The translations under genes and the position numbers were made by a program. DNA of 64,000 nucleotides from Owenia fusiformis (Eukaryota > Annelida > Polychaeta > Sabellida > Oweniidae), in assembly GCA_903813345.2 (NCBI GenBank), contig CAIIXF020000007.1:25283564-25347563 (forward strand). Direction: 5' to 3'. The first letter of the stretch is position 1. Each line of letters starts with the position of its first letter. The notes beneath the pieces were generated by a model. It searched no databases. It had not been told where the DNA came from and saw nothing but the letters and a program-made list of their open reading frames with translations. Below are positions 46,676 through 60,130 of this stretch, one piece after another.

Positions 46676-49586
46676 TTTTTGTCAGTGTAACCACATTGCC
46701 CAACTAACAATTCACTTACAACTTTGAAAACAACAAATTGACAGTTTGATTATACTTATGGAGAGTCATATGTCCATGAACTGGTGAATCTCATAATACA
46801 AGTATGCTGCCACTTAAATACGTGCTCATTTAGTTGTCATGAACTATTATTATCACTGAGCATCATTGTGGACCTTTTGTTGTTGGATGATAATGACTAT
46901 TATTGTTTGATGTGTGACGTAGGTCTTAATGCTTGAATGACTCAATTAGTTAACATTGCTTGACTAAGTTTGACTTAAAGAACTGTTGAATCTCATAATA
47001 CAAGTATGCTGCCACTTAAATACGTGCTCATTTAGTTGTCATGAACTATTATTATCACTGAGCATCATTGTGGACCTTTTGTTGTTTGATGATAATGACT
47101 ATTATTGTTTGATGTGTGACGTAGGTCTTAATGCCTGAATGACTCAATTAGTTAACATTGCTTGACTAAGTTTGACTTAAAGCTAGTTTTGATTGATTAA
47201 ATGTGATTTAGGTCATCATTTTTTGAATGACACATTTAGTGACTAATGGGTGATCTAGGTCTTAATGTTTGTAAGACACAATTAGTTAACTTTGCTTGAC
47301 TAATGTGTGACTTAGGTCTTAATGTTTGAATGACACATTTAGCTAGGTTTGCTTGATTAAATGTGATTTAGGTCATCATTTTTGATTGACACATTTAGTT
47401 AGTTATGGCATAATAATATGAAATATACCTTTATGTATAGATTTGAAGAACATCAGCTCACATCCCCGTCTGAATCTATTGTTATATTTGATTTCTTTAA
47501 GCGAGAATAATTTCAAATGTTATTCACGTCCAGAACCGGAAGCCATTTTTAGCTACAGCGAAAAAATTTCACCATTTGTCAAACTCCGAAATGAAATTTT
47601 GAAATATCTAAATCCAGACAAGCAACGCTTCATCCTAAATATTATTAATATTCTTAAAAATATTTATAAAATTTATTAAAAATGAGTTCTAGGTGCGTGT
47701 AGGTGCGTGTAGCACATTACATACGAAATCAATGAAGTTTCGTCTAGCTGTAAGCTAGAGACTCGAGTAAATTCAGTTGATTTGCCATGCCAAAAAATAA
47801 AAAGAATTCAGGGTCATTCATTTACATGAAATTGATGAGTAAAAATGCATTAGAATTCAGTTGAAAAATATCTTGGTAGTATAACTTACCTCGAGTCTTT
47901 AGTTTTGTAACACTAAATCATTCCTAATGGCTCTAGATGACCTAGAAATAATAATAATTTATAAATGAATGAAAATTTTCCTGGCAGCCATTGAATGTCA
48001 GAGGTCAAATCGGGGTCCTTTCGTTTTACCCCTGATTCTGACCCCTGATTAAACCCTTGGTTTATATCGAAAACAAATGCGTTTTTTATATTGAAAATGT
48101 ACTTTTTTCGAATAAATTTTGTCTTGGACATACAGATTGCATTACTATCTTTAATAATATCTGAAGGTTTGAGGAAAATATATCCAGATGTCTTAGAAAA
48201 CTGTCACCAAACGTACCGTATTTTCATCAATTTTTTTCAAAACCCTGGATTAGACCCTTGGTCGGCGTTGGAAAAAAGGATCAATTCCTCATAAAATATC
48301 CCAATTTATAACAACTAGTAATTTGAAATGTTAAAAATACATCTAACTTTGAAATATAAAGCAAAAATAATTCCCATATCTTCAAGTTTATTACCTAAAA
48401 ACAGCTTATCAAAAACAAGTCAAATTATCATGGAAATTTTCAACTTAGCCTACTTGATTAGTGCTGCCATCTATTGATAGTGATTCAGAGTTCATAGCCT
48501 TTATCAAGGTTTTTATGTAACATAGACATGTGCTTCAATACTATTTATTTATTACATTGAATATGATATATCCATTCCTCACCACACCCATTCCAGAAGT
48601 TTTCGCTAATATGACTGATGGTGCCCAGGATCTAAGCGCAAATAATAGGCTAGGAAGATGGACTCCTTTCACGTATATGAACACCTCCTAACACATGAAC
48701 ACCTGAAGTCCTATTGTATGAATCATAAGGCCATCCATACCAATCCTTCATTTGCCACCTAGGTAATATGCTTCATCTATTTCTTAGTTCAGTTTTGTAT
48801 TTGCCCATACTGTGCTTCCATGCTTCATGGTTTTTTGTTGCATGATGAGTTTCCAGGTTAAAAAGCAAAAAACTAAAGGAATACAGAGTGGCTTGAATAA
48901 CACACAGACCACCTATATCAGTCAGTCATTTGCCACCTAGATAATATGCTTCATCTAACAATTCTTAGTTCAGTTTTGTATACATTGTGCTTGATTATTC
49001 TTTGGAAAATTATAATGAATTCATAAGAGTTTTGTCTCTCTTATAATACACTTGAGTTTGTAAATTAAAGGTTCATTATGGAATCAAACTGCCTCATGCA
49101 TTTCAAATATGCAGTCTTGTTCAGGAGAAAAACATGATGCTTTCATTGATAAAGTAGCCTATTTAAGATCATATTTGAAATGAAATTCATGCTTGTTTAT
49201 AAGTTTCTTATTTTTGTTGATAAAGTATGCATCAAGTTTTTCTTTCGATCAATTCAGATCTCATCAGCTGAACTCTACTGAAAATGTTACTGATTAAAAG
49301 TTCATGTTAACCAACATATTACAAATTATTAAACAAAACATATTATTAACATTTCATGATTTATTCAAAATATACATACATGTACATTATACATAAATAC
49401 ATACATTATAGATACAGAATTGCAAAATACACTTAAAAATATACACAATGTTAAAATCCACCGAGATCTACAAATATGACATATTATAATACATCATTGC
49501 CAAACATACTAAAATCTAAATTCAAAAGTTTTAAAATACATCTATGTAATCTGCCAACCTACTTATATGAGCATGCCTACTATCAA
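46676..49586. other. Repeat-rich noncoding stretch
   Basis: It includes the 202-bp duplication at 46786-47190, degenerate shorter units to 47420, and a weaker duplication (TCATTTGCCACCTAGRTAATATG at 48750 and 48926). The rest is AT-rich. A 72-codon and a 67-codon ORF overlap on opposite strands near 48.0-48.3 kb and are not credible. A minus-strand AATAAA at about 49360-49365 could serve the composite gene that ends at 49587. Confidence 0.5.
46786..47420. repeat. 202-bp tandem duplication and degenerate satellite
   Basis: GAATCTCATAATACAAGTAT occurs at 46786 and 46988, and about 200 bases downstream are nearly identical between the two copies. The sequence then dissolves into 60-70-bp units with core GTGACTTAGGTCTTAATGTT and TTAGTTAACTTTGCTTGACT. 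Confidence 0.85.
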
Positions 49587-50877
49587 TTAATGATCAGGAC
49601 AATACATCTTCTTTGAAACTTTCTTAAGCTTAGAACATTTTTTATGATACCATGTTTGACATTCATGCTTTTTACTCACAAACTCACAGCCAGCCCAACC
49701 ATATCTTGTACTACATCAGCTTGGCCACATGGACAAAAACAACTTACTTGGAATGTTGATGTGGCAACTTTGGATAATTTTAATTTTTTCTTAGTCTGTT
49801 TTGGAAAGGGAAGAATTTTTTTCTCTGTTAAACAGGATACCAAATGTGATCTCATTTCTTTTGCTTCAAATACGACTCTACTTGTCCCATTGAAACCATT
49901 GAAGCAAAACTCAGTCATAAATGCAATAGAGAAGAGGCCACAATCATAGCCATTATTTTGTTTTTGAACAGCTGGAATAATAACATCAAAATGGTTTACC
50001 CTATCTGGTTTATAAATCTGAGTTAATTGAATTTGTAAACTACTGTTAATGTCTTTTTTATTTAAGCTATCTAATAAATATACTTTGCCATCAGAATCTT
50101 GAATTGAAGTTACCCAATGAGAATTGCCATTATGATGAATCTGCACAGAAGGACCATTAGTTGAAATCATTGGAGTACACCAAGTGAACATATTTTTATT
50201 TGCTACATAAATGGGAGCATAGTTTGTTAATTGGAATCCAGAAATATTTTCAAATTGTCCCATTAGAACTGACTGAGCTGCATTAATTATCTGGTCATCT
50301 AACCATCCCTTTGGATTAAGAATAAGTTCATAATGTTGAGTTTTAAGAAAGTTAATATTATCTGCACCTTTGTCGACTGATTGAATTTCATTTTTTTCCA
50401 TTTCATTACTATCTTTACTACTATTTTCACATTTTAATTGAACATCTGATTTATTACTTAAATTATCATCACTGGCCATTTCATTGATTAAACTATTTGA
50501 AATTTCATCATGATTTTCAACTAAATTATCAACAAGGGTTTTCATTTTTTTAATGTTTGTATCATTCATAACTGGCTCAGACTGCTCAAATCTTAATCGT
50601 TTTCTAGATTGGCTTGATTTACGAATGTGAGGAGATTTTAATATTGATTTGATTTCTGAGTTGCAAAGATTAGTTTTTAATTTAGGGGTTGAAGTAGCAT
50701 TATCATTAATAGAAATATGTTCATTAAAATCATTTTCATTCATAGTAATATTAGCAACAGAGGAGTCAGGGGCTGGAATTATATCAAAATCACTGGGTTT
50801 GGGCTTTTTTCCACCTATTTTTTTTGCTGACCTTTTCCTACTATTTTTACGTAATACTGTTAAGTTCTTAATTCTTT
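49587..50877 (-). pseudogene. Composite MULE element gene, 3' part: Ulp1 protease and PHD-like tail
   Basis: This is the C-terminal part of the gene that starts at 57545. After a Lys/Ser-rich linker comes a C48 (Ulp1/SENP-type) cysteine protease domain. Gly-Trp-Leu-Asp-Asp-Gln near 50310 is the substrate-binding start; the catalytic His is in Ser-His-Trp (50117-50119), Asp in Leu-Leu-Asp-Ser (50068-50070), Gln and Cys in Gln-Asn-Asn-Gly-Tyr-Asp-Cys-Gly (Cys at 49940-49942). All catalytic residues are present. Such proteases normally remove SUMO-like modifiers. The frame ends at 49676, but shifting by one at about 49700 reveals Ala-Gly-Cys, Trp-Tyr-His-Lys-Lys-Cys and Tyr-Cys-Pro-Asp-His ending at a stop at 49587, the rest of a PHD-like zinc finger that begins Cys-Phe-Cys-Pro-Cys-Gly. 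A small deletion therefore truncates the protein. At the 5' side, residues before Asn-Lys-Arg-Ile come from the inserted element. Confidence 0.75.
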
Positions 50878-50882
50878 TATTA

Positions 50883-53800
50883 GAGAGGTTTCGCAAAACG
50901 TTTTTTAGCTCCACGGATCCGTATCCGTAACGTATTTATCAGATTTATGCGTAGTCAGTTCAATTTATACGTGAAATGATACGGAAAACACGAAAAATGA
51001 GGCTTTTGTACGTTGGTCATTTACGTATCCGATTTTACCCTTCGATTATATTGTTTTTAGTTCTAAAGGTATCACTATATGAACAACCACAATGTGCTGT
51101 GTATAATTTGACTAAAATTTGGTGAATGAATTTGTTTATTGTTTGAAATAAATTGAGTTTTTCAAATAGTATGTTCAATTCATTTTACACTGTATGGAAT
51201 GGTATTGCAATAATTACAGTGTACATGTTTCGCACAACGTTTTAGCTACCCGTATCAAAATCCGTAACGCATCGATGGAGTAAAAGTGTATTCAATACGT
51301 TTGTGATACCAACAGCAATACCGAAAGTACGTAAACTAACACTTTCTGTGCGTAGTTGTCTCCGTATCTATTTTGTCCTTCAAATCTTGATAAATTTTTC
51401 CCTAAATGTATAATTTTAGTAACACACATATGTTATCATGTGTGTCGTGCTAATTTTGATGAAGTAATAACCTTATCTGCCGATAAATTTGATTATAAGC
51501 GATGGGCCTGCAATTTTTACAAATAAAGCTTTAGTCACATTTGCTAATAGGCAGATGTAAGGTCTATCGTTTCTGGGGTCAATAGTAATACCGTAGTCAA
51601 TTTCTTAGGGACATCAAACCAATGGTTAGCAGATAGGCCACCTGAATATATATTTTGTGCCTTAAGTCACGCTCGGAATTCATATAGAGCAGGGTCTTGG
51701 GCTTAGTTTGAGTATAGTAGCTTGTTCCTGACCTCGACAATGAATGTGATATTGGGTCTAAAGATGGCGCCCCGAATCAATCTTGCCCGTATCCAGCTTG
51801 TGGCAAGGGGGGGGGGGGGGGCTTTTTTGGTTTAAAACTCCCGAGAAGTGCTCAGTATGATGAAAAACTGAATGATTTTCAGGTAGCTTCTTCCCGTGGT
51901 ATGACTTGAACACGCATCAAGTCATGCGATCTATGTCAAATAGTAAGCGGCCTCGTTTGGGGGTCCAGGGAGACTAGTGCCCTAAAGTTTAGTGTCCAAG
52001 CTTCCCCGAACCACCGTATCATTTCCTATTTTCATTTTTGTAAAGACAGGCCTGACATCCAGATCCTGTAACGGATCTTCTCTCTTACATATGAGTCACG
52101 GTAGGGGCCCCAGATGTTCCTAACTCTTGGGTAGTGGTCCATGATGTGTTCTTCATTAGCAGCTTTGTGATGATAGGGAAGGGGGGAGGTTGTAATTCAA
52201 GTACATATTCAGTAGATATCGGGTTGTCCCCGATTGTTTTGTGCGGTTGTCTCCAGTTGGAATAACTTAGTTGAGTAAATGGGTATCAACGTTTCGTTGT
52301 GGTTTATTGGTTGTGCCTGATTGTGTTTTGATGGGTTGAGTAAATCGATTGAGTATTTGACTAAGCCTGGTTGTGTAATGGTGGGTTAGTGTCAAGTAGG
52401 TATAGGTTTTGCCGAAATGTGTTGTGTACGTTTGAGACTAGGTTCTCTTTTGATGGTTGTTAGTCTGGTGATTTAGTATCGGGTTGTGTCCCATTGTGTT
52501 ATGTTAATCTTATAATGGGTTGTTTTCTCTTGTGAATATGTTCTGTTGGTTGGCTAGCTGGTTGTGGCTAGTCGGGTGAGGTATCTTGTTTTGTCTGATT
52601 GTGTTGTGTGATTGGCGTTGTCTCCAATTGGGTTAAGTTAGTTGTGTATCTCGGTATTACAATTTTAATGTGTTTTTTTGCCTGTGCCTGATTTTGCTTT
52701 GATTGTTTGGTTTTGGGTTTTGAAAAATTGTGTTGTGCTACTTGAACAATGGGCTGTGTTTGCTTTTGTTGGTTTAACATTGGGTTGTGCCAAATTGTGT
52801 GGTGATAATTTCACAGTTCGATGTGTTTTCATGGTTGTTAGTTTAGTTGTGTTTTATTGGTTGTGCCTGATTGTGTTTTTATTGTTTAGTGTTGGATTGT
52901 GCACAATGGTGTTGAGTTAATTCAACACTTGGTTGTGTTTGTCTTTGTTGTCTTATTATTGGGTTGTGACATATTGTGTTAATCTGACAGTTGGTTGTGT
53001 TTTGGTGGTTGTAAGTCAGGTTGCGCCATGCTGGCTTTGGTGCCGGGTTATGCTATATTGCGTTCTGAGTATATTGACACTGGGTTATGTTCTATTGTAC
53101 TGTTGCATGATTGGTGATCTAGGTTGTGTTTGGTTGTAATAGGTTATATATGTCGAGTTGTGGGCTGTGTCCGATCAGGCTGTGGTGTTTATTGGGATAA
53201 GAAACAAATGGCCGGTTTAGGGTAATTTGTTGTTGGTTTATCAGTTGATTCTATGTAGACCCCAAAGGAGATATAGGGTATTATGATGGTGAGATATTCA
53301 ACTGGCATGTTAGGCGTTAGTTTCGCGTCGTTCTCTGATGAGCTGGTCCCATGTTGTTCAATGAATTCAAGAAAAACAATGCTAATTTATCTTTTTACAT
53401 AATATATTTTTTGTTGATTTCTCATACAAAACATACTTTTATTGCATAACTGATATATTTGTGTCGCTTTCTATGATCAAATATGTTACTTTGTTCCCCT
53501 CCTTAGTTTATATGAGGCATGGGTTTTCAACTAAAGCCCATGTATGAGGAAAGGGGGGGGGGGGTGGCTTATGTGAAAACGTATGGTTTCCGAATGCCTT
53601 GGCCTTGCCCAAGTCGCTATTTTTTTTTTATCTTGAATTATTACCAAAATATACAGCTGCAAAAACATGAAATTAAAGGTCCATGTGCAGCATGGCAAGT
53701 GATTTTAGAAATGTTTACGCATTTTGTGGCATAATGCAGTCACTGCACGTCACTTAATGACCACTATTCAGCCTATTTGTTTTCAAACCCTTAAATATTC

Positions 53801-54199
53801 CCAAAAGAATAATTTGACACTGAATTGGTTATTGTAAACCGAGAAATAACCTTTTCTGGCCTAAAGGATATTCTTCATTTTGAAATTGATGTCATGAAAT
53901 TAATAAATGACACCTTAGGGATGAAAGGGTTAATATGTATTTTTGCACTCACCAAAATTTCTTTTGGAGTTGTGATTCTGAAAGCTGACACTCCCAATGG
54001 TGTTTTGAAATCTAAGTGCAGATGAAGCCTTTTATTTGACCCTAGTTTTCACTACTATTAAACACGGATTGAGATGCGTTTATAATTACGTACTTCAAAA
54101 AACGCACTGCGAAACGAAAATTATCGATATACGTATCCGTAAACGTAACGAGATACGGATGCGGATACGTTTTAGCTAATTCGTTTTGCGAAACCTCTC
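50883..54199. mobile_element. 3317-bp element interrupting the composite gene
   Basis: Termini GAGAGGTTTCGCAAAACG are perfect inverted copies; TATTA is duplicated at 50878-50882 and 54200-54204. Both ends then carry TTAGCT and repeated ACGGATCCGTATC/CGTAACG-type motifs. A second, diverged copy of the left end begins near 51229 (GTTTCGCACAACGTTTTAGC), so the left 345 bp are tandemly duplicated. Inside are a Family-B MITE with a long G-run (about 51780-51885) and the G/T-rich module (about 51915-53340). There is no transposase, so it is non-autonomous. The 5-bp target duplication does not point to one superfamily with confidence. Confidence 0.9.
51915..53340. repeat. G/T-rich module, copy 2
   Basis: Leader (about 51915-52150) and G/T-rich body match 30800-32290 in order and orientation: shared phrases include GACACGCAT-like starts, GATCCTGT-GCGGATC-TCTC, GGGCCC-GATGTT, and the GGTTGTGTC units. 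The plus strand again is C-poor. Small ORFs on either strand are compositional. Confidence 0.78.
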
Positions 54200-57100
54200 T
54201 ATTATCATTTAACGTCTGACCTAAGGAAAGTTTCACTGCAATTATATGGTAACAAGTATTTGTTGAAGGACACTGACACTTTTCTTTTGGATGAATAGTA
54301 ACTGCATATTTTTCCTCTCTGATTCCACGGACAATAAAGCAACCCATCTCAGGAATATGTTTAACACCATTTGAATTGATAACTGCTTTGGCCATAGCTA
54401 CTTGAGACATTGATTGTTTGCTATTGTTTTGACTCTTTATTATATCATTACTTTCTAACTTGACTGGTACGTTTGAGCCTAACACAGTATCATTAACTGG
54501 ATGGGGAGACATTGGTGATTGACATTGATTAGACTGTTCCTCTACAGGAATTTGGCTTATTTCTGCCTGTATTTGATTATCAGGAATATCACATTTTGTC
54601 AACTGAGATGTTTGGAGCTTCTCTACACTTTCATTGTTAATATCATTTACACTATTGCTAGGACTATTTAACTGCTGGACTTCACTTTCATTAGACTGAA
54701 CTTCCTGACTATTTGAACCTATTTCCCCAACATAACACCTATTGTTTTTAACCATTTCAATTATGTCTTCAGATTTGTATATATGATTTGGCATCACTAA
54801 TTCATCAATTTGAATTGAACAATTCGAAAATTCTGGCAAAAGCAAGTAATTTCCAATCCCCGCTCTACCTCTGAGACACTCTGCCTGGTAAGAATTTTGT
54901 AGAAAATATAACGCAAGAACCATTTGATCAATGGGAGCTTGTTTACATTCTTGTAGTCTTTTCAAAACTGCATTATGAGATTCAGCACTATTGTTTGTAA
55001 CACCAGAGAAAGGATTGTACATGTTATGTCCCTCTAACACCCAACGAACAGAATGGTTCAAAATGTCTGACCTAATATGAGCCCTAAAGTATTCTATCAT
55101 AGCTTGACTCCATTGAGGAAAGAATTTTTCTTCCAGATCTTCAAATTCTTCTAAATTACAAGCCTTCAGCAAACTTCTAACCTGGGAGATGTATACAGTA
55201 ATGTCATCAGATGTTGCACCATGACCTATCAGCCAGCGTTTAACATCGCTAATAATGTGGTTCCAGCAGTGTAACACAGAGAACATTCCTGTATTCACCA
55301 GTGCATTCTTTATACCACGTTCTCTATCAATGACTATTGGGATATTTTTTTGTTTACCAAGAGCAGGAATTTGATCTTTTAAAATTGAGAAAAAACGCTC
55401 GTGGTATTTCTGATCTTTTTTTTCATGAATAACATAGGCCAAACGTATAATTTTGTTGCCTTTGTACAAAATATGTCGAAATGTTAAGGGAGAAATCCAA
55501 AAGTCGCCTAAATTATAAGTCGAATCATAGTTCATGTAAAAAGGAATTTCGGTGGTTTTTTGAATTGAAAGTATATCTGAAAGTTCGGAGAATGTGGTAT
55601 TAAGACCTACACAGCATAGCAAATTAGGATATACGTCAACATTCATTATGTAACCTCCAAGGTGATATGCTAATTCTATCAAATTATAAACTGCATCTTT
55701 GCCTAACATTTTTTCTTTCTTAAAGTTGTGCAAATGGCGCTGAACTTGGCGCAAGTTCCTTGGATTACCTATGCCCTGTTCTGTGCCTACAGTATTAGAA
55801 GCCAAAAGATCCTGATAAACAGCATTTGGAACATTACTAGAATGGGATTTGATATCATTAAGTACTGAAGGTTTTGTTCTTCGAAATTCAATTTCCTTAT
55901 TTTTACTGTTACCATGTGCCAGTGGTATATACAATTTTTCATCCCCAAGATAATGTACCAAAACAAATGTTTTATTTGATATGAGTGAAATTTCAAATTT
56001 TCGAAACTGCGATGATCCCTTTTTAAGAGGTTTTCCATCTTTCCCCATTACTTTTATGTTGAAAGCTGTTTTAGTTATACATGCCCTTGGATCCGATCCT
56101 CTATTGGACCATGAGTACCCATCACAACGCCAATCCTTTTCAAAGATCTGATCCCTGTTGAATATGTATATATCACCTGCACGGGGTTTAATGGGAGGTT
56201 TAGTTGATAAGAGAGTGTTATCAACGCTAGAAAGAAAACTGGCATATCTATTGGTAGACCATGGGATATTTTCATTTGCAACAACAATGGATTTACCATC
56301 ACCACCACCCACCTGTGAATAAAGAGGGACATGAACACCACTGACCCATTCACTGTCTTTCGCTCTAGTAGTTGCACTGTCCCGCGAAGTAACAGAGTTA
56401 CGTAATGGGGCAGTACTGCTACCGGAACCAGACAGGTCAGAGCCAGATGGCACCTTAACAATGTTACCCTTGGTTAAGCCAGGGGAACGCCTAACACCAC
56501 TGGTTCGTCCACTGTCTTTCGCTCCTGTAGTCGCACTGTCCCGCGAAGTAACAGAGTTACGTAACGGGGCAGTACTGCTACCAGAACCAGACAGGTCAGA
56601 GCCAGATGGCACCTTAACAATGTTACCCTTGGTTAAGCCAGGGGAACGCCTAACACCACTGGTTCGTCCACTGTCTTTTGCTCCAGTAGTCGCACTGTCC
56701 CGCGAAGTAACTGAGTTACGTAACGGGGCAGTACTGCTACCAGAACCAGACAGGTCAGAGCCAGATGGCACCTTAACAATGTTACCCTTGGTTAAGCCAG
56801 GGGAACGCCTAACACCATTGGTTCGTCCACTGTCTTTTGCTCCAGTAGTCGCACTGTCCCGCGAAGTAACAGAGTTACGTAACGGGGCAGTACTGCTACC
56901 GGAACTAGACAGGTCAGAGCCAGATGGCACCTTAACACTGTAACCCTTGGTTAAGCCAATGGTAGATTCAACAGTACTGACAGCTGAAAATAAGTTATGA
57001 CATAAAACAGCCTGTCCCCGGGCATTAATATGGTGACCATCCCGGCTCAACATCCCACGTACTATTTTGCCATGTTTGGCAAAATCAATATGTGGAATAT

Positions 57101-57545
57101 ATGTTACGCGGGGTGTTTCACCACAGTAATGTCTGAGGAGCAGGTTTACCATCCTTGCAGTAGTGTTCATGTTGTAAAGCGCCTCATCTGATGGATGTAC
57201 TCTGCATTCTTCTCCGTACCTCTGGCATCTGCTGCATGTCTCCTTTGGGAAATGGCTCCTAGCACGTGGCAGAATCCCCGAAACATAAACATGACAAAAC
57301 TGTTTAGACAATGTACTGAAAACTAGTTTTTGAAACTTTCTCATAATTTGGGTGACAGTTTCATTGCTGGAATTGTTAGTCCCAACATGGTAAATGATGT
57401 TGTCGAAAGATGGAAGGATATCCGATACCTTTTCAAGTAAATCTTCAATTTTGCAACCACTATAAGAAAGAACTACTGCTTCATCCACATCGAAAAACTT
57501 TTGAACATATTTCAACTGACTGTCACCCACAATCAGAGTAGCCAT
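54200..57545 (-). CDS. Composite MULE element gene, 5' part: SGNH-like, repeats, DDE transposase, SWIM
   Basis: The ATG at 57545 (Met-Ala-Thr-Leu-Ile-Val-Gly-Asp-Ser) is preferred over an upstream TTG. Residues 1-185 look like an SGNH hydrolase: Gly-Asp-Ser9, Gly55-Thr-Asn57-Asn, and Asp169-Gly-His-His172. Residues about 200-410 are four 53-residue Ser/Thr-rich repeats. Residues about 640-870 form a MULE-type transposase with D674 (Asp-Ser-Thr-Tyr-Asn-Leu-Gly), D740 (Val-Ile-Asp-Arg-Glu) and E855 (Asn-Ser-Ala-Glu-Ser-His-Asn), plus His-Cys-Trp-Asn-His. A SWIM zinc finger follows: C1090-x-C1092-x5-C1098-x-H1100, common in Mutator transposases. After codon 1115 the frame enters the inserted element and stops at 54042. 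Removing the insert and one TATTA gives about 1515 codons in frame with the Ulp1 part. Presumed role: transposition of its own element; the roles of the SGNH and protease parts are unknown. Confidence 0.8.
56325..56960 (-). repeat. 159-bp in-frame tandem repeat, 4 copies
   Basis: TTGGTTAAGCC recurs at 56470, 56629, 56788 and 56947, exactly or nearly 159 bases apart. Each unit encodes 53 residues starting Gly-Leu-Thr-Lys-Gly and containing Pro-Ser-Gly-Ser-Asp-Leu-Ser. Copies are almost identical at DNA level except the last (C-terminal) one. The opposite strand is also open through the array (56461-56943), a consequence of repeat composition. Confidence 0.93.
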
Positions 57546-58165
57546 TTCAACTAGTGTATCGATTTTCAATAATAATTAATTGAATGATGATTTTGCTTCT
57601 GTTCGATTTGTAGAGTAAGATTCAGCAATATATGTTATCAAGAACAAGTATCTCGCTTCATCTGATGAAACTAAGATTTGATGGTATTTTAAAGATGTTC
57701 AAGAGAAAGCTCATTGGTTGTAATTGAACACTCCTACATTTCAAGCAATCTTATTGGATGCTATAACTATATTCAAACACCTTTGAAGGTATCATATCAT
57801 TATATTATAATCTTATTAAGATGTCTCATCATTGAAAACATTAGACTCCAGAACTGTGTAATTCCAATGTTTGTAAAAATCAATAGAAATTGTTTTTTTG
57901 CTAATCTAATACTATCTTTGAAGGTAGGATCAATTAAAACATCAGATAATCCCATGTGATAATATCCCAGAACTTTGAGAGATGATTCCAATGTTTGGAA
58001 AAATCAAAAGTGTATTGTTCACTATTGTTCCTCTAATCACACCTTTGAAGGTATGATCAATGAAAATAATTAAATCTTAAAGGTAATAGGCCAAATAAAT
58101 GGTCCGAATATCAATTGTCCAAATCCCTTTGGTCAGAAACCTAATGATCCTAAAATTAACAATTG

Positions 58166-58493
58166 TTGATATGATATTTAAATTTCAATACTGTACTCCT
58201 GGTCAATTTAGCAAGTTTTAATTCTGCAAATTTTGAGAAATCACAATTTCGTGGCACTATTTCACAAGTTTCAATTTCATATTCTCTGAATCCTCAAGCT
58301 CTGTAAACAAAGTTACCCTATGAACAGTAATTACACCTACCCAATATATTTGGATATGGTACGATATACAATTACTTGCACCTCAGACTTAAAATGGGAA
58401 ATTTGCGAAGATTATTTTTCTGCGAAACAAAATCAAACAAAATCCAAATGAAAATTATCTGGAGTACAGTGTTTAAATTTAAATATCATGACA
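58166..58493. mobile_element. MITE with ACTGTACTCC ends
   Basis: ACTGTACTCCTGG at 58190 and CTGGAGTACAGT ending at 58470 are inverted. Outside these, ATGATATTTAAATTT on the left and AAATTTAAATATCAT on the right extend the inverted repeat to about 30 bp. Internal AATTTCG/CGAAAT motifs resemble a fragment at 42520. Confidence 0.75.
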
Positions 58494-59799
58494 GAAAGAC
58501 TTAATATAAGATTTTAGCTCAACCTATCTAAAACCTACATTCAATTCCATTTACCTAATCTATTCGAATGATGTTAATCCCCTAAGTGCAGATTGGCATG
58601 TAGGGAGTACGGCAACCACAAGAAAAGCGAAATGTAATATTTTGAATAAGCATGGCTAAATGGATAATCTAAATATATGTTATTCAATAAACACACATCA
58701 ATGTGATGTATTCCATGTTCATACATTTCTTGCATCTTTATCTTGATATTAAAATTAAGTTCAGACCAATGGAAATCAGACTATTGGAGTTTGGATGAAT
58801 GGGATTTAGACCAATGAGGCGACCCCTATGATAGACTAATACTTATAGATTAAGAGGATGGCAATTCTGTCACAGAGATTTGACAAACTAAAGCCACTAA
58901 ACAAATAGAAGTAAGGGAGTAGAAGAGATAATATAGACATCATACATGGAGCAAAGAAAGTTTGCATATACTGAGTTACATGTGTAGCCTACAGGGGCCC
59001 ACTTTGGACAAGACAAATTTGTCCCAATGCAATATGACCACCGTTTCATACGAAACAGACATTATGACCTTCACCGACACCGATTCATACGAAACAGTTA
59101 TACATTACAAAACTTTTCGACAGGGTCCTCACTCTCTTTTTCCTTGGTACACAGATTGGAGGGCAGTGGAGATATTTATTTCGGTCAATTCTACTTGTCC
59201 CGATGCCAGGTGTGGTCCCGCCTTGTGGTCCAAATCGTTAGGGAGCTAGAGAAAATCCTAATGGTCTGACCTCATGGCATGATGTGTCTAGGCTCTCTAC
59301 TGATTTATTGAAACCCAATTTTAGCTGAAATAACATTAGAAATAGGTTATGCTTCATACAGTATATTCAATTCCTATATAGGCCTATGCATAAAATTGAA
59401 ATTTATGATTTTTTGTGGAAAATATTAGAGTTAGCCTAGACTAGGATTACAAATCTAAAAAACTAAATACAAACTGATTTTATTTCCAATGTTACATGTC
59501 TAGATATCGAAGTTAGGTCTTCCGACAACAGATATTGCAGAATTTGCGTGTACAGGACGAATATATCGTACTAGCAGTTTGACTTTGAAAATTTCAATAA
59601 AAAATGGCGACCCGAAAATTTTAACTCGTAACCGTTTCAAAATTTTAGTATTTTCTGCACAAATACATAATGCAGCGACTTATCCTTGACAATATTTATA
59701 ATTAATATATTTACTTATATGTACACATTAAAATCTCTCGAGTAAAACACCAAACTTTCATGGTATTACTATTCCATTTCCAAGGGTCAAATCATGTGA

Positions 59800-60130
59800 A
59801 AATAAACCATGTGGCTTTTCTAATCGCGGGTCCAATCAGGGGGAAAACGAAACGTCCCGTCAAATCGCTCATAGGCAGCCGGAAGAAACTTGTCACTTTT
59901 CCTGCTTGGAAATAAGTGGATTATTTGGTATATTTTTATTATTTCGAGGGGAATGTTGAAATCGTTGTAATAGGCAACTCAAAATGAAGAATAATTAGCC
60001 CACACTTTGGTTTTCTTTCAGAGAGATATTTATCTTATGATTCCTGTTGCCTATTGCTGCTCTTTAAATGAGGAGATAAGAAAAAAAATCAATTCGTGGA
60101 AAGATCGCCCGAAAATTTGAATTATCAAAA
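59800..60130 (+). promoter_or_regulatory. Probable RBM45 promoter and 5' UTR
   Basis: The 330 bases before the ATG hold a CCAAT box in GGTCCAATCAGG (59830) and an ETS-type site CCGGAAG (59879), both common in TATA-less housekeeping promoters. No TATA box is evident. Transcription start not determined; this is motif-based inference. Confidence 0.45.

What the first reader, a model, noticed from the sequence alone, without database searches (positions are those of the whole stretch)
49587..57545. Composite transposon protein joining SGNH-like, MULE transposase, SWIM, Ulp1 protease and PHD-like modules
Seen: one reading frame (once a later insertion is removed) encodes a Gly-Asp-Ser/Gly-x-Asn/Asp-x-x-His set of SGNH hydrolase blocks, a DDE triad with MULE-type context, a CxCx5CxH SWIM finger, an intact His-Asp-Gln-Cys Ulp1 set and a Cys/His-rich tail. 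Known: Mutator elements often carry SWIM fingers, and plant Kaonashi-type MULEs carry Ulp1 domains; SGNH-type esterase domains occur in some LINE ORF1 proteins. Inference: combining all of these in one animal MULE protein may be an undescribed architecture, possibly using deSUMOylation and an esterase in transposition.
Basis: partly seen in the sequence, partly recalled or inferred. Interest (0 to 1): 0.85.

Follow-up and report, generated by a model that had tools for sequence, protein, structure and literature searches.

The report
Mutator-like transposon with grafted esterase domain
This stretch is a broken copy of a cut-and-paste jumping gene whose very long transposase also carries an esterase domain of the kind found in retrotransposons, a CAMTA-like DNA-binding domain and a SUMO-protease domain, showing how freely mobile elements swap parts.

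Summary
The fusion is real. The window holds a Mutator-type element (48013-59858, minus strand) with ~39-bp terminal inverted repeats and a 9-bp target duplication. Six long copies with such ends lie in the genome; 6 of 6 have 8-9 bp duplications. A second copy on contig C1 (mostly 97-98% identical DNA) has the modules in one frame without the insert: SGNH, 53-residue repeats, CG-1, MULE DDE, SWIM, Ulp1, PHD-like tail; that frame has one stop. In the window a separate 3.3-kb element interrupts the gene, and a 5-bp insertion puts the tail out of frame.

SGNH is homologous to retroelement ORF1-type esterases. Ulp1 is less new than claimed: PMC2836005 reports Ulp1 in Mutator elements of hydra and lancelet, and two more SWIM-Ulp1-PHD loci exist in this genome.

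In the paper listings I saw, nothing describes SGNH or CG-1 inside a DDE transposase. I file it as a new variant of a known kind. Roles of SGNH and Ulp1 are inference.

The parts
48013..59858 (-). whole Mutator-like element, including a later 3.3-kb insert
   Evidence: DNA homology to the C1 and C5 copies ends here; TIR and TSD at both ends
48013..48051 (+). 3'-side terminal inverted repeat, GGGTCCTTTCGTTTTACCCCTGATT...
   Evidence: 82% over 39 bp with the other end; TIR pattern at 19 sites genome-wide with up to 2 mismatches, 0 for the reversed-pattern control
59821..59858 (-). 5'-side terminal inverted repeat
48004..48012 (.). target site duplication GTCAAATCG
59859..59867 (.). target site duplication GTCAAATCG
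56961..57545 (-). SGNH hydrolase-like domain, residues 1-195 (S9, G30, N57, D169/H172)
   Evidence: HMM of 5 SGNH domains of this genome: 48.2 bits, best of 200 shuffles 3.6; hhalign probability 98.6%, E 4.8e-16; Pfam Lipase_GDSL_2 E 0.0066, below cut-off
56322..56957 (-). four tandem 53-residue (159-bp) Ser/Thr-rich repeats; 17 in the C1 copy
55947..56234 (-). CG-1 domain (CAMTA-type DNA-binding), residues 438-533
   Evidence: PF03859 E 4.3e-6, 26.9 bits over cut-off 23.5
54981..55532 (-). MULE DDE core: D674, D740, C760-x2-H, E855
   Evidence: PF10551 19.4 bits in P0001 and 20.4 in a shorter piece, cut-off 27.6; ISH6 transposase model E 1.2e-4, also under its cut-off; triad invariant against 3 other MULE ORFs
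54222..54299 (-). SWIM zinc finger CQCPSTNTCYH
   Evidence: PF04434 weak, E 0.026 in a short piece, below cut-off
50883..54199 (.). later insertion: short-TIR element with no stop-to-stop frame of 100 residues or more inside it; 5-bp duplication TATTA at 50878-50882 and 54200-54204
   Evidence: empty site in the C1 copy
49856..50338 (-). Ulp1/C48 SUMO-protease-like domain, H-D-Q-C set complete
   Evidence: PF02902 E 7.7e-7, 29.6 bits over cut-off 20.7
49587..49741 (-). PHD-like Cys/His tail, out of frame here by a 5-bp insertion near 49690; in frame in the C1 copy
   Evidence: PHD of the C1 tail E 0.0041, below cut-off

Best explanation
It is a dead copy of what was probably an autonomous Mutator-superfamily DNA transposon with one gene, without introns as far as the C1 copy shows, for a very long transposase. 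Shown: module order, ends, target duplications, a second copy with the same fusion, and a past of selection on the protein as a whole. Inferred: the CG-1 domain binds the element's ends; the DDE core cuts and joins, giving 8-9 bp duplications; SWIM and PHD tether the protein to DNA or chromatin; Ulp1 removes SUMO from the transposase or from host silencing factors near it. The SGNH domain came from a retroelement-type esterase and most likely serves as a localisation or lipid/acyl-binding module, possibly with weak esterase activity, as reported for a LINE ORF1 protein (PMC3905857, abstract).
For: Six long TIR-paired copies, 6 of 6 with exact 8-9 bp duplications. The C1 copy has all modules in one frame of 2231 codons with one stop. 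DDE triad invariant with 3 other MULE ORFs. SGNH homology; the best solved structure of the retroelement SGNH profile is 4c1b, recorded as an ORF1-encoded protein, which I recall as the ZfL2-1 LINE esterase. Between window and C1 copies 23 of 45 coding differences outside the repeats are synonymous where about 9 are expected, dN/dS 0.25 over 1301 codons (binomial p 5e-6). Catalytic residues of SGNH and Ulp1 are kept in the window, those of SGNH also in the C1 copy.
Against: MULE, SWIM and PHD scores stay below Pfam cut-offs. The genome-wide CG-1 scan, which scored 5 candidates, did not list the transposon copies (4 matches). Only 2 of 6 long copies carry SGNH. SGNH alone shows 3 differences, 1 synonymous, too few to show selection. 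The structure model failed. No functional or expression data. No other animal genome could be searched; 3 viral-contig scans had pattern matches (2, 14 and 6) but no confirmed relative.
Confidence: 0.62

Rival explanations
1. The SGNH part is passenger sequence: an accidental fusion of a retroelement ORF1 fragment to the transposase start, carried along without function.
For: Only 2 of 6 long copies have it. Selection on SGNH alone cannot be shown (1 synonymous and 2 non-synonymous differences). SGNH domains abound in this genome (86 matches), so accidental capture is plausible.
Against: All four blocks are intact in both copies, in frame with the transposase, in two separate insertions with different target duplications. 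The frame is open from the ATG through SGNH in both.
Confidence: 0.25
2. Polyprotein model: the Ulp1-type protease cuts the long chain into esterase, transposase and protease-PHD products, as adenovirus protease (recalled) cuts viral precursors.
For: A weak, sub-cut-off Peptidase_C5 match (E 0.014). Low-complexity linkers and repeats separate the modules. Derivative copies with only Ulp1-PHD keep the same ends.
Against: No cleavage sites identified; weak cross-matching between related protease families is expected; Ulp1 enzymes are known for cutting after the GG of SUMO (recalled).
Confidence: 0.08
3. The element is not a MULE but belongs to another superfamily (for example Zisupton-like or Rehavkus) that shares SWIM, Ulp1 or PHD.
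For: PF10551 below cut-off; 5 of 6 copies have 8-bp duplications, the length given for Zisupton (PMC12730594 passages); PHD and minisatellite recall Rehavkus (PMC6446971 passages).
Against: Both catalytic Asp residues and the TNNxxE glutamate are invariant with three MULE ORFs of this genome that pass the Pfam cut-off; the PF10551 match is colinear over profile positions 3-96 of 99. The repeats lie inside the ORF, not before the 3' TIR.
Confidence: 0.08

Closest known systems
Ulp1-bearing Mutator elements of hydra and lancelet (Repbase reports cited in PMC2836005)
   Same: Animal Mutator elements encoding Ulp1; the figure legend there names an alignment of Ulp1 and PHD of Mutator transposases (passages)
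   Different: No SGNH or CG-1 in the passages I saw; their sequences could not be compared here
Plant KI-MULE (Kaonashi) elements
   Same: MULE with a Ulp1-like protease (PMC2528002 passages)
   Different: Non-TIR, and protease in reverse orientation; [quoted passage not shown]
Rehavkus elements
   Same: PHD finger, minisatellite, 9-bp duplications (PMC6446971 passages and section 8)
   Different: Minisatellite before the 3' TIR there, inside the ORF here; SGNH, CG-1 and Ulp1 not mentioned in what I saw; DDE relationship not tested
SGNH esterases of CR1/RTEX LINE ORF1 proteins and other retroelements (PDB 4c1b)
   Same: Homologous SGNH domain; [quoted passage not shown]
   Different: There in retroelements (PMC3905857, PMC5408684 passages); here at the start of a DDE transposase
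texim SGNH gene associated with fish Helitrons (PMC4021074, abstract)
   Same: CR1-related SGNH gene carried by a DNA transposon
   Different: Described there as a gene captured by a Helitron, not as part of a DDE transposase
Ginger1 transposons (PMC2836005 passages)
   Same: DDE transposase with C-terminal Ulp1, in one listed family with PHD
   Different: Integrase-type DDE with GPY/F motif, not MULE

Membership tests
Mutator superfamily (MULE) | DDE triad with C-x2-H and TNNxxE context | tested here: met
   the three acidic residues invariant with L055, L056, L057; C-x2-H read in the window sequence
Mutator superfamily (MULE) | Pfam PF10551 over curated cut-off | tested here: not met
   19.4-21.8 bits against 27.6; a score threshold, not an anatomical feature
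Mutator superfamily (MULE) | target site duplications of about 8-11 bp | tested here: met
   6 of 6 long copies, 9 bp in one and 8 bp in five; range from PMC6446971 table passages
Mutator superfamily (MULE) | terminal inverted repeats | tested here: met
   39 bp at 82%; 6 long pairs and 1 short pair in the genome
Mutator superfamily (MULE) | placement within MULEs in a DDE tree | not tested
   no reference element sequences held
Rehavkus | minisatellite before the 3' TIR | tested here: not met
   repeats are at 56322-56957, inside the ORF on the 5' side
KI-MULE (Kaonashi) | non-TIR element with reverse-orientation protease | tested here: not met
   TIRs present, same strand and frame
SGNH hydrolase superfamily | S, G, N and D-x-x-H blocks in order | tested here: met
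SGNH hydrolase superfamily | flavodoxin-like fold | tested here: inconclusive
   single-sequence model, mean pLDDT 37
SGNH hydrolase superfamily | Pfam PF13472 over cut-off | tested here: not met
   17.4 bits against 32.9; also absent from the genome-wide list of 86
Peptidase C48 (Ulp1) | H-D-Q-C set and PF02902 over cut-off | tested here: met
   29.6 bits over 20.7
CG-1 (CAMTA DNA-binding) | PF03859 over cut-off | tested here: met
   26.9 bits over 23.5; related gene L009 58.1 bits. The six-frame genome scan did not list the transposon copies
PHD finger | PF00628 over cut-off | tested here: not met
   17.5 bits against 24 for the C1 tail; related tails at C6 and C12 reach 26.5 and 32.1
SWIM zinc finger | CxCxnCxH and PF04434 over cut-off | tested here: inconclusive
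   motif present; 10-14.5 bits against 19.6

The most novel reading that the evidence does not exclude
A DDE transposase polypeptide has built in a retroelement-type SGNH esterase and a CAMTA-type CG-1 DNA-binding domain on top of the SWIM-Ulp1-PHD tail, and all modules work in one chain: the esterase places the protein at membranes or germ-granule-like bodies, CG-1 finds the ends, and Ulp1 strips SUMO-dependent silencing at the donor or target site. The genome would then show one esterase module shared among LINE-like, DIRS/Ngaro-like, DUF6589-type and Mutator elements.
Probability: 0.35. Interest if true: 0.7.

Novelty: new variant of a known kind. Interest (0 to 1): 0.5.

Why it matters
It shows an enzyme module known from retroelements sitting inside a cut-and-paste transposase, so module exchange crosses the two great classes of mobile elements. 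It also offers a DNA-binding domain (CG-1) shared with a host transcription factor family and with another gene of the same genome, which makes the question whether such genes come from transposases, or the reverse, directly testable. If the esterase matters for a DNA element too, an RNA-packaging role cannot be its only use.

Tried and rejected
Structure prediction of residues 1-195 without an alignment failed (pLDDT 37), so I ran no fold search. phmmer of P0001 against solved structures gave 5 weak, unrelated-looking matches (best E 0.17); P0004 gave none. For the SGNH piece Pfam also listed unrelated families at E 0.028-0.25 (fungal Zn cluster, F-actin binding, tachystatin and others), better or no worse than OSK at 0.067, so OSK is no evidence; NCBIfam listed one unrelated family at 0.052. 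PHROGs gave one family of unknown function, phrog_14008, E 3.5e-5, not followed up. Pairwise BLAST of the SGNH piece is good with some SGNH ORFs (L051 3.8e-8, L042 7.5e-7, L053 1e-7, L054 6e-5) and poor with others (L049 0.044, L048 0.24, L052 0.20; E-values for tiny databases). Viral contigs held no confirmed relative. An intron reading of the 3.3-kb gap was rejected: it has TIRs and a 5-bp duplication, its end recurs in the genome, and the C1 copy lacks it. That the Ulp1-only copies (C4, C10, C7:28.97 Mb) are a first form of the element was rejected as less simple than deletion: they share both ends and showed no transposase match. Paper searches found no paper with CG-1 domain, MULE and transposase together and none with DUF6589 and transposon.
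Full report
What was checked. The finding lies on the minus strand. From the ATG at 57545 one frame runs 1167 codons; after a gap, the frame with the protease runs from 50935 to 49679. The gap is a separate element, 50883-54199: its outer 18 bases are perfect inverted repeats found at no other place in the window with up to two mismatches, flanked by TATTA on both sides. Inside it I saw only two stop-to-stop frames of 80 or more residues, 80 and 83. Its end accounts for residues from ~1116 of the first half, and 29 of the 41 matches cover only that end (40 of 309 candidates were scored).

Second copy. A search of the same genome (G000, 498 Mb, 525 contigs) found a colinear copy at C1:9.445-9.453 Mb, 97-98% identical in DNA over most of its length and 93% in its last 0.6 kb. 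Its frame has 1312 residues, one TAA, then 928 residues in the same frame: 2231 codons from the ATG, one stop, 17 repeats against 4 in the window. There the gap is absent and the PHD-like tail is in frame. In the window a 5-bp insertion shifts the tail. So each copy has its own lesion, which fits an intact common ancestor.

Ends. DNA homology among window, C1 and C5 copies stops at 48013 and 59858. These ends are inverted repeats, 82% over 39 bp, flanked by GTCAAATCG on both sides. A pattern made from the ends occurs at 19 places with up to two mismatches, with 0 for the reversed-pattern control: by my pairing 12 in six long pairs, 2 in one pair ~0.6 kb apart, 5 single. Duplications, read by eye from the printed flanks, are exact in 6 of 6 long copies: 9 bp in the window, 8 bp in the others. 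All six keep the protease part; two keep SGNH; a third (C5) keeps only fragments of the CG-1/MULE part. The Ulp1-only copies on C4 and C10 share one junction (window 57878 to 50513) with ~0.27 and ~0.57 kb of other sequence between, which I did not compare; their protease frames carry stops.

SGNH. Pfam gave Lipase_GDSL_2 at E 0.0066, under cut-off. The genome has 86 matches to Lipase_GDSL_2 (114 candidates, all scored), and the window's domain is not among them. I cut SGNH domains from five of ten fetched ORFs, built an HMM and scored the window: 48.2 bits, against 3.6 for the best of 200 shuffles and 0.5 for the rest of the protein. hhalign of the two transposon copies with six such domains gave probability 98.6%, E 4.8e-16, over residues 3-189. 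That second alignment's best solved structure is 4c1b, recorded as an ORF1-encoded protein. Several of these ORFs carry zinc knuckles or a reverse transcriptase (L042, L045, L051, L052, L054), which marks them as retroelement genes. Structure prediction was useless.

CG-1. Residues 438-533 match PF03859 over its cut-off; the six-frame genome scan (5 candidates) did not list the transposon copies. Over 250 residues the region is 39% identical to a 581-residue open frame at C1:30.34 Mb (L009), which has two CG-1 copies and no MULE match. Another CG-1 gene in two exons, at C1:19.01 Mb, is probably the host CAMTA (the name is my inference). Whether L009 was born from a transposase or gave its domain to one is open.

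MULE core. PF10551 is under cut-off; an archaeal ISH6 transposase model matches at E 1.2e-4, far under its own cut-off; D674, D740 and E855 are invariant with three other MULE ORFs of this genome. Of the eight PF10551 matches I fetched four loci and scanned three; these three show no SGNH, CG-1 or Ulp1 in Pfam at E 0.1, two have FLYWCH, and one a PHD under cut-off.

Ulp1 and PHD. Peptidase_C48 is over its cut-off. Two other loci, at C6:16.65 Mb and C12:16.78 Mb, have SWIM, C48 and PHD in that order over their cut-offs, spread over more than one frame (C48 at C12 only just, 20.9 against 20.7). They are 31-34% identical to this family where they align, with a TNNxxER-like fragment upstream that resembles the MULE third-acid motif only weakly (E 0.007 for C12, 0.26 for C6). 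So a SWIM-Ulp1-PHD tail is not confined to this element.

Selection. Between window and C1 copies, outside the repeats, 23 differences are synonymous and 22 not over 1301 codons, dN/dS 0.25, binomial p 5e-6 (simple site counts, no transition correction). The part with CG-1, MULE and SWIM: 12 of 23 synonymous, p 0.0008. The Ulp1 half: 10 of 19, p 0.001. SGNH alone: 1 of 3, p 0.52, uninformative.

Literature, as seen. PMC2836005 (passages): Ulp1 in Mutator elements of hydra and lancelet; legend naming an alignment of Ulp1 and PHD with Mutator transposases; this removes the claim that Ulp1 in an animal MULE is new. PMC6446971 (passages with parts of its table, and section 8): extra motifs of MULE groups include OTU, SET, FAR1 and PMD; the word protease does not occur in the main text. 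PMC13359780 (passages): no SWIM, PHD, protease or Ulp in the main text. PMC3905857 (abstract and passages) and PMC5408684 (passages): SGNH in LINE, Penelope-like and LTR elements. PMC4021074 (abstract): SGNH gene carried by fish Helitrons. PMC6431247, PMC5718144, PMC12730594 and PMC2528002: passages. Ten searches listed no paper whose title or abstract start describes SGNH or CG-1 inside a DDE transposase; four of them listed only the top of a longer result (20 of 39, 20 of 141, 12 of 29, 15 of 163). The library lacks most subscription papers, and I saw no Repbase report.

Verdict. A real, formerly selected, six-module Mutator-type transposase. New, as far as I could see, are the SGNH and CG-1 additions; the protease, and by a figure legend the PHD, are known in Mutator elements. 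Function of the added modules is inference.

Noticed in passing
L053 and L059 (G000:C11:7742900-7753500): Another DNA-transposon-like element: an SGNH ORF (Pfam E 2.6e-6, under cut-off) with long Ser/Pro repeats, followed by ORFs with a DUF6589 domain (E 4e-10) and a weak tesmin-like CXC domain. That DUF6589 marks a transposase is my recall. A second case of SGNH next to a possible transposase.
   Followed up: partly
L009:1423-3147 (G000:C1:30340640-30342178): One locus with an open 581-residue frame holding two CG-1 domains, 39% identical to the transposase over 250 residues and continuing past CG-1 toward the MULE core; possible domesticated transposase part or donor.
   Followed up: partly
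L022, L035, L037 (G000:C6:16.65 Mb, C12:16.78 Mb): Further SWIM-Ulp1-PHD loci, seemingly in exons or broken frames, with a TNNxxER-like fragment upstream.
   Followed up: partly
L054:93-2789: Reverse transcriptase ORF with an SGNH-like domain (under Pfam cut-off) at its C-terminus, looking like a DIRS/Ngaro-type element (superfamily name recalled).
   Followed up: no
window 50883-54199: Short-TIR element whose end recurs at 29 or more genome places, with an inner stretch of degenerate direct repeats at about 52290-53000.
   Followed up: no
L039, L040, L041: Three derivative copies keep both ends and the Ulp1-PHD part but lack SGNH to SWIM; two share the same internal junction, suggesting that a Ulp1-only derivative itself moved.
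   Followed up: partly
window 56322-56957 versus L025: The 53-residue repeat array differs greatly between copies, 4 versus 17 units, in frame in both.
   Followed up: no
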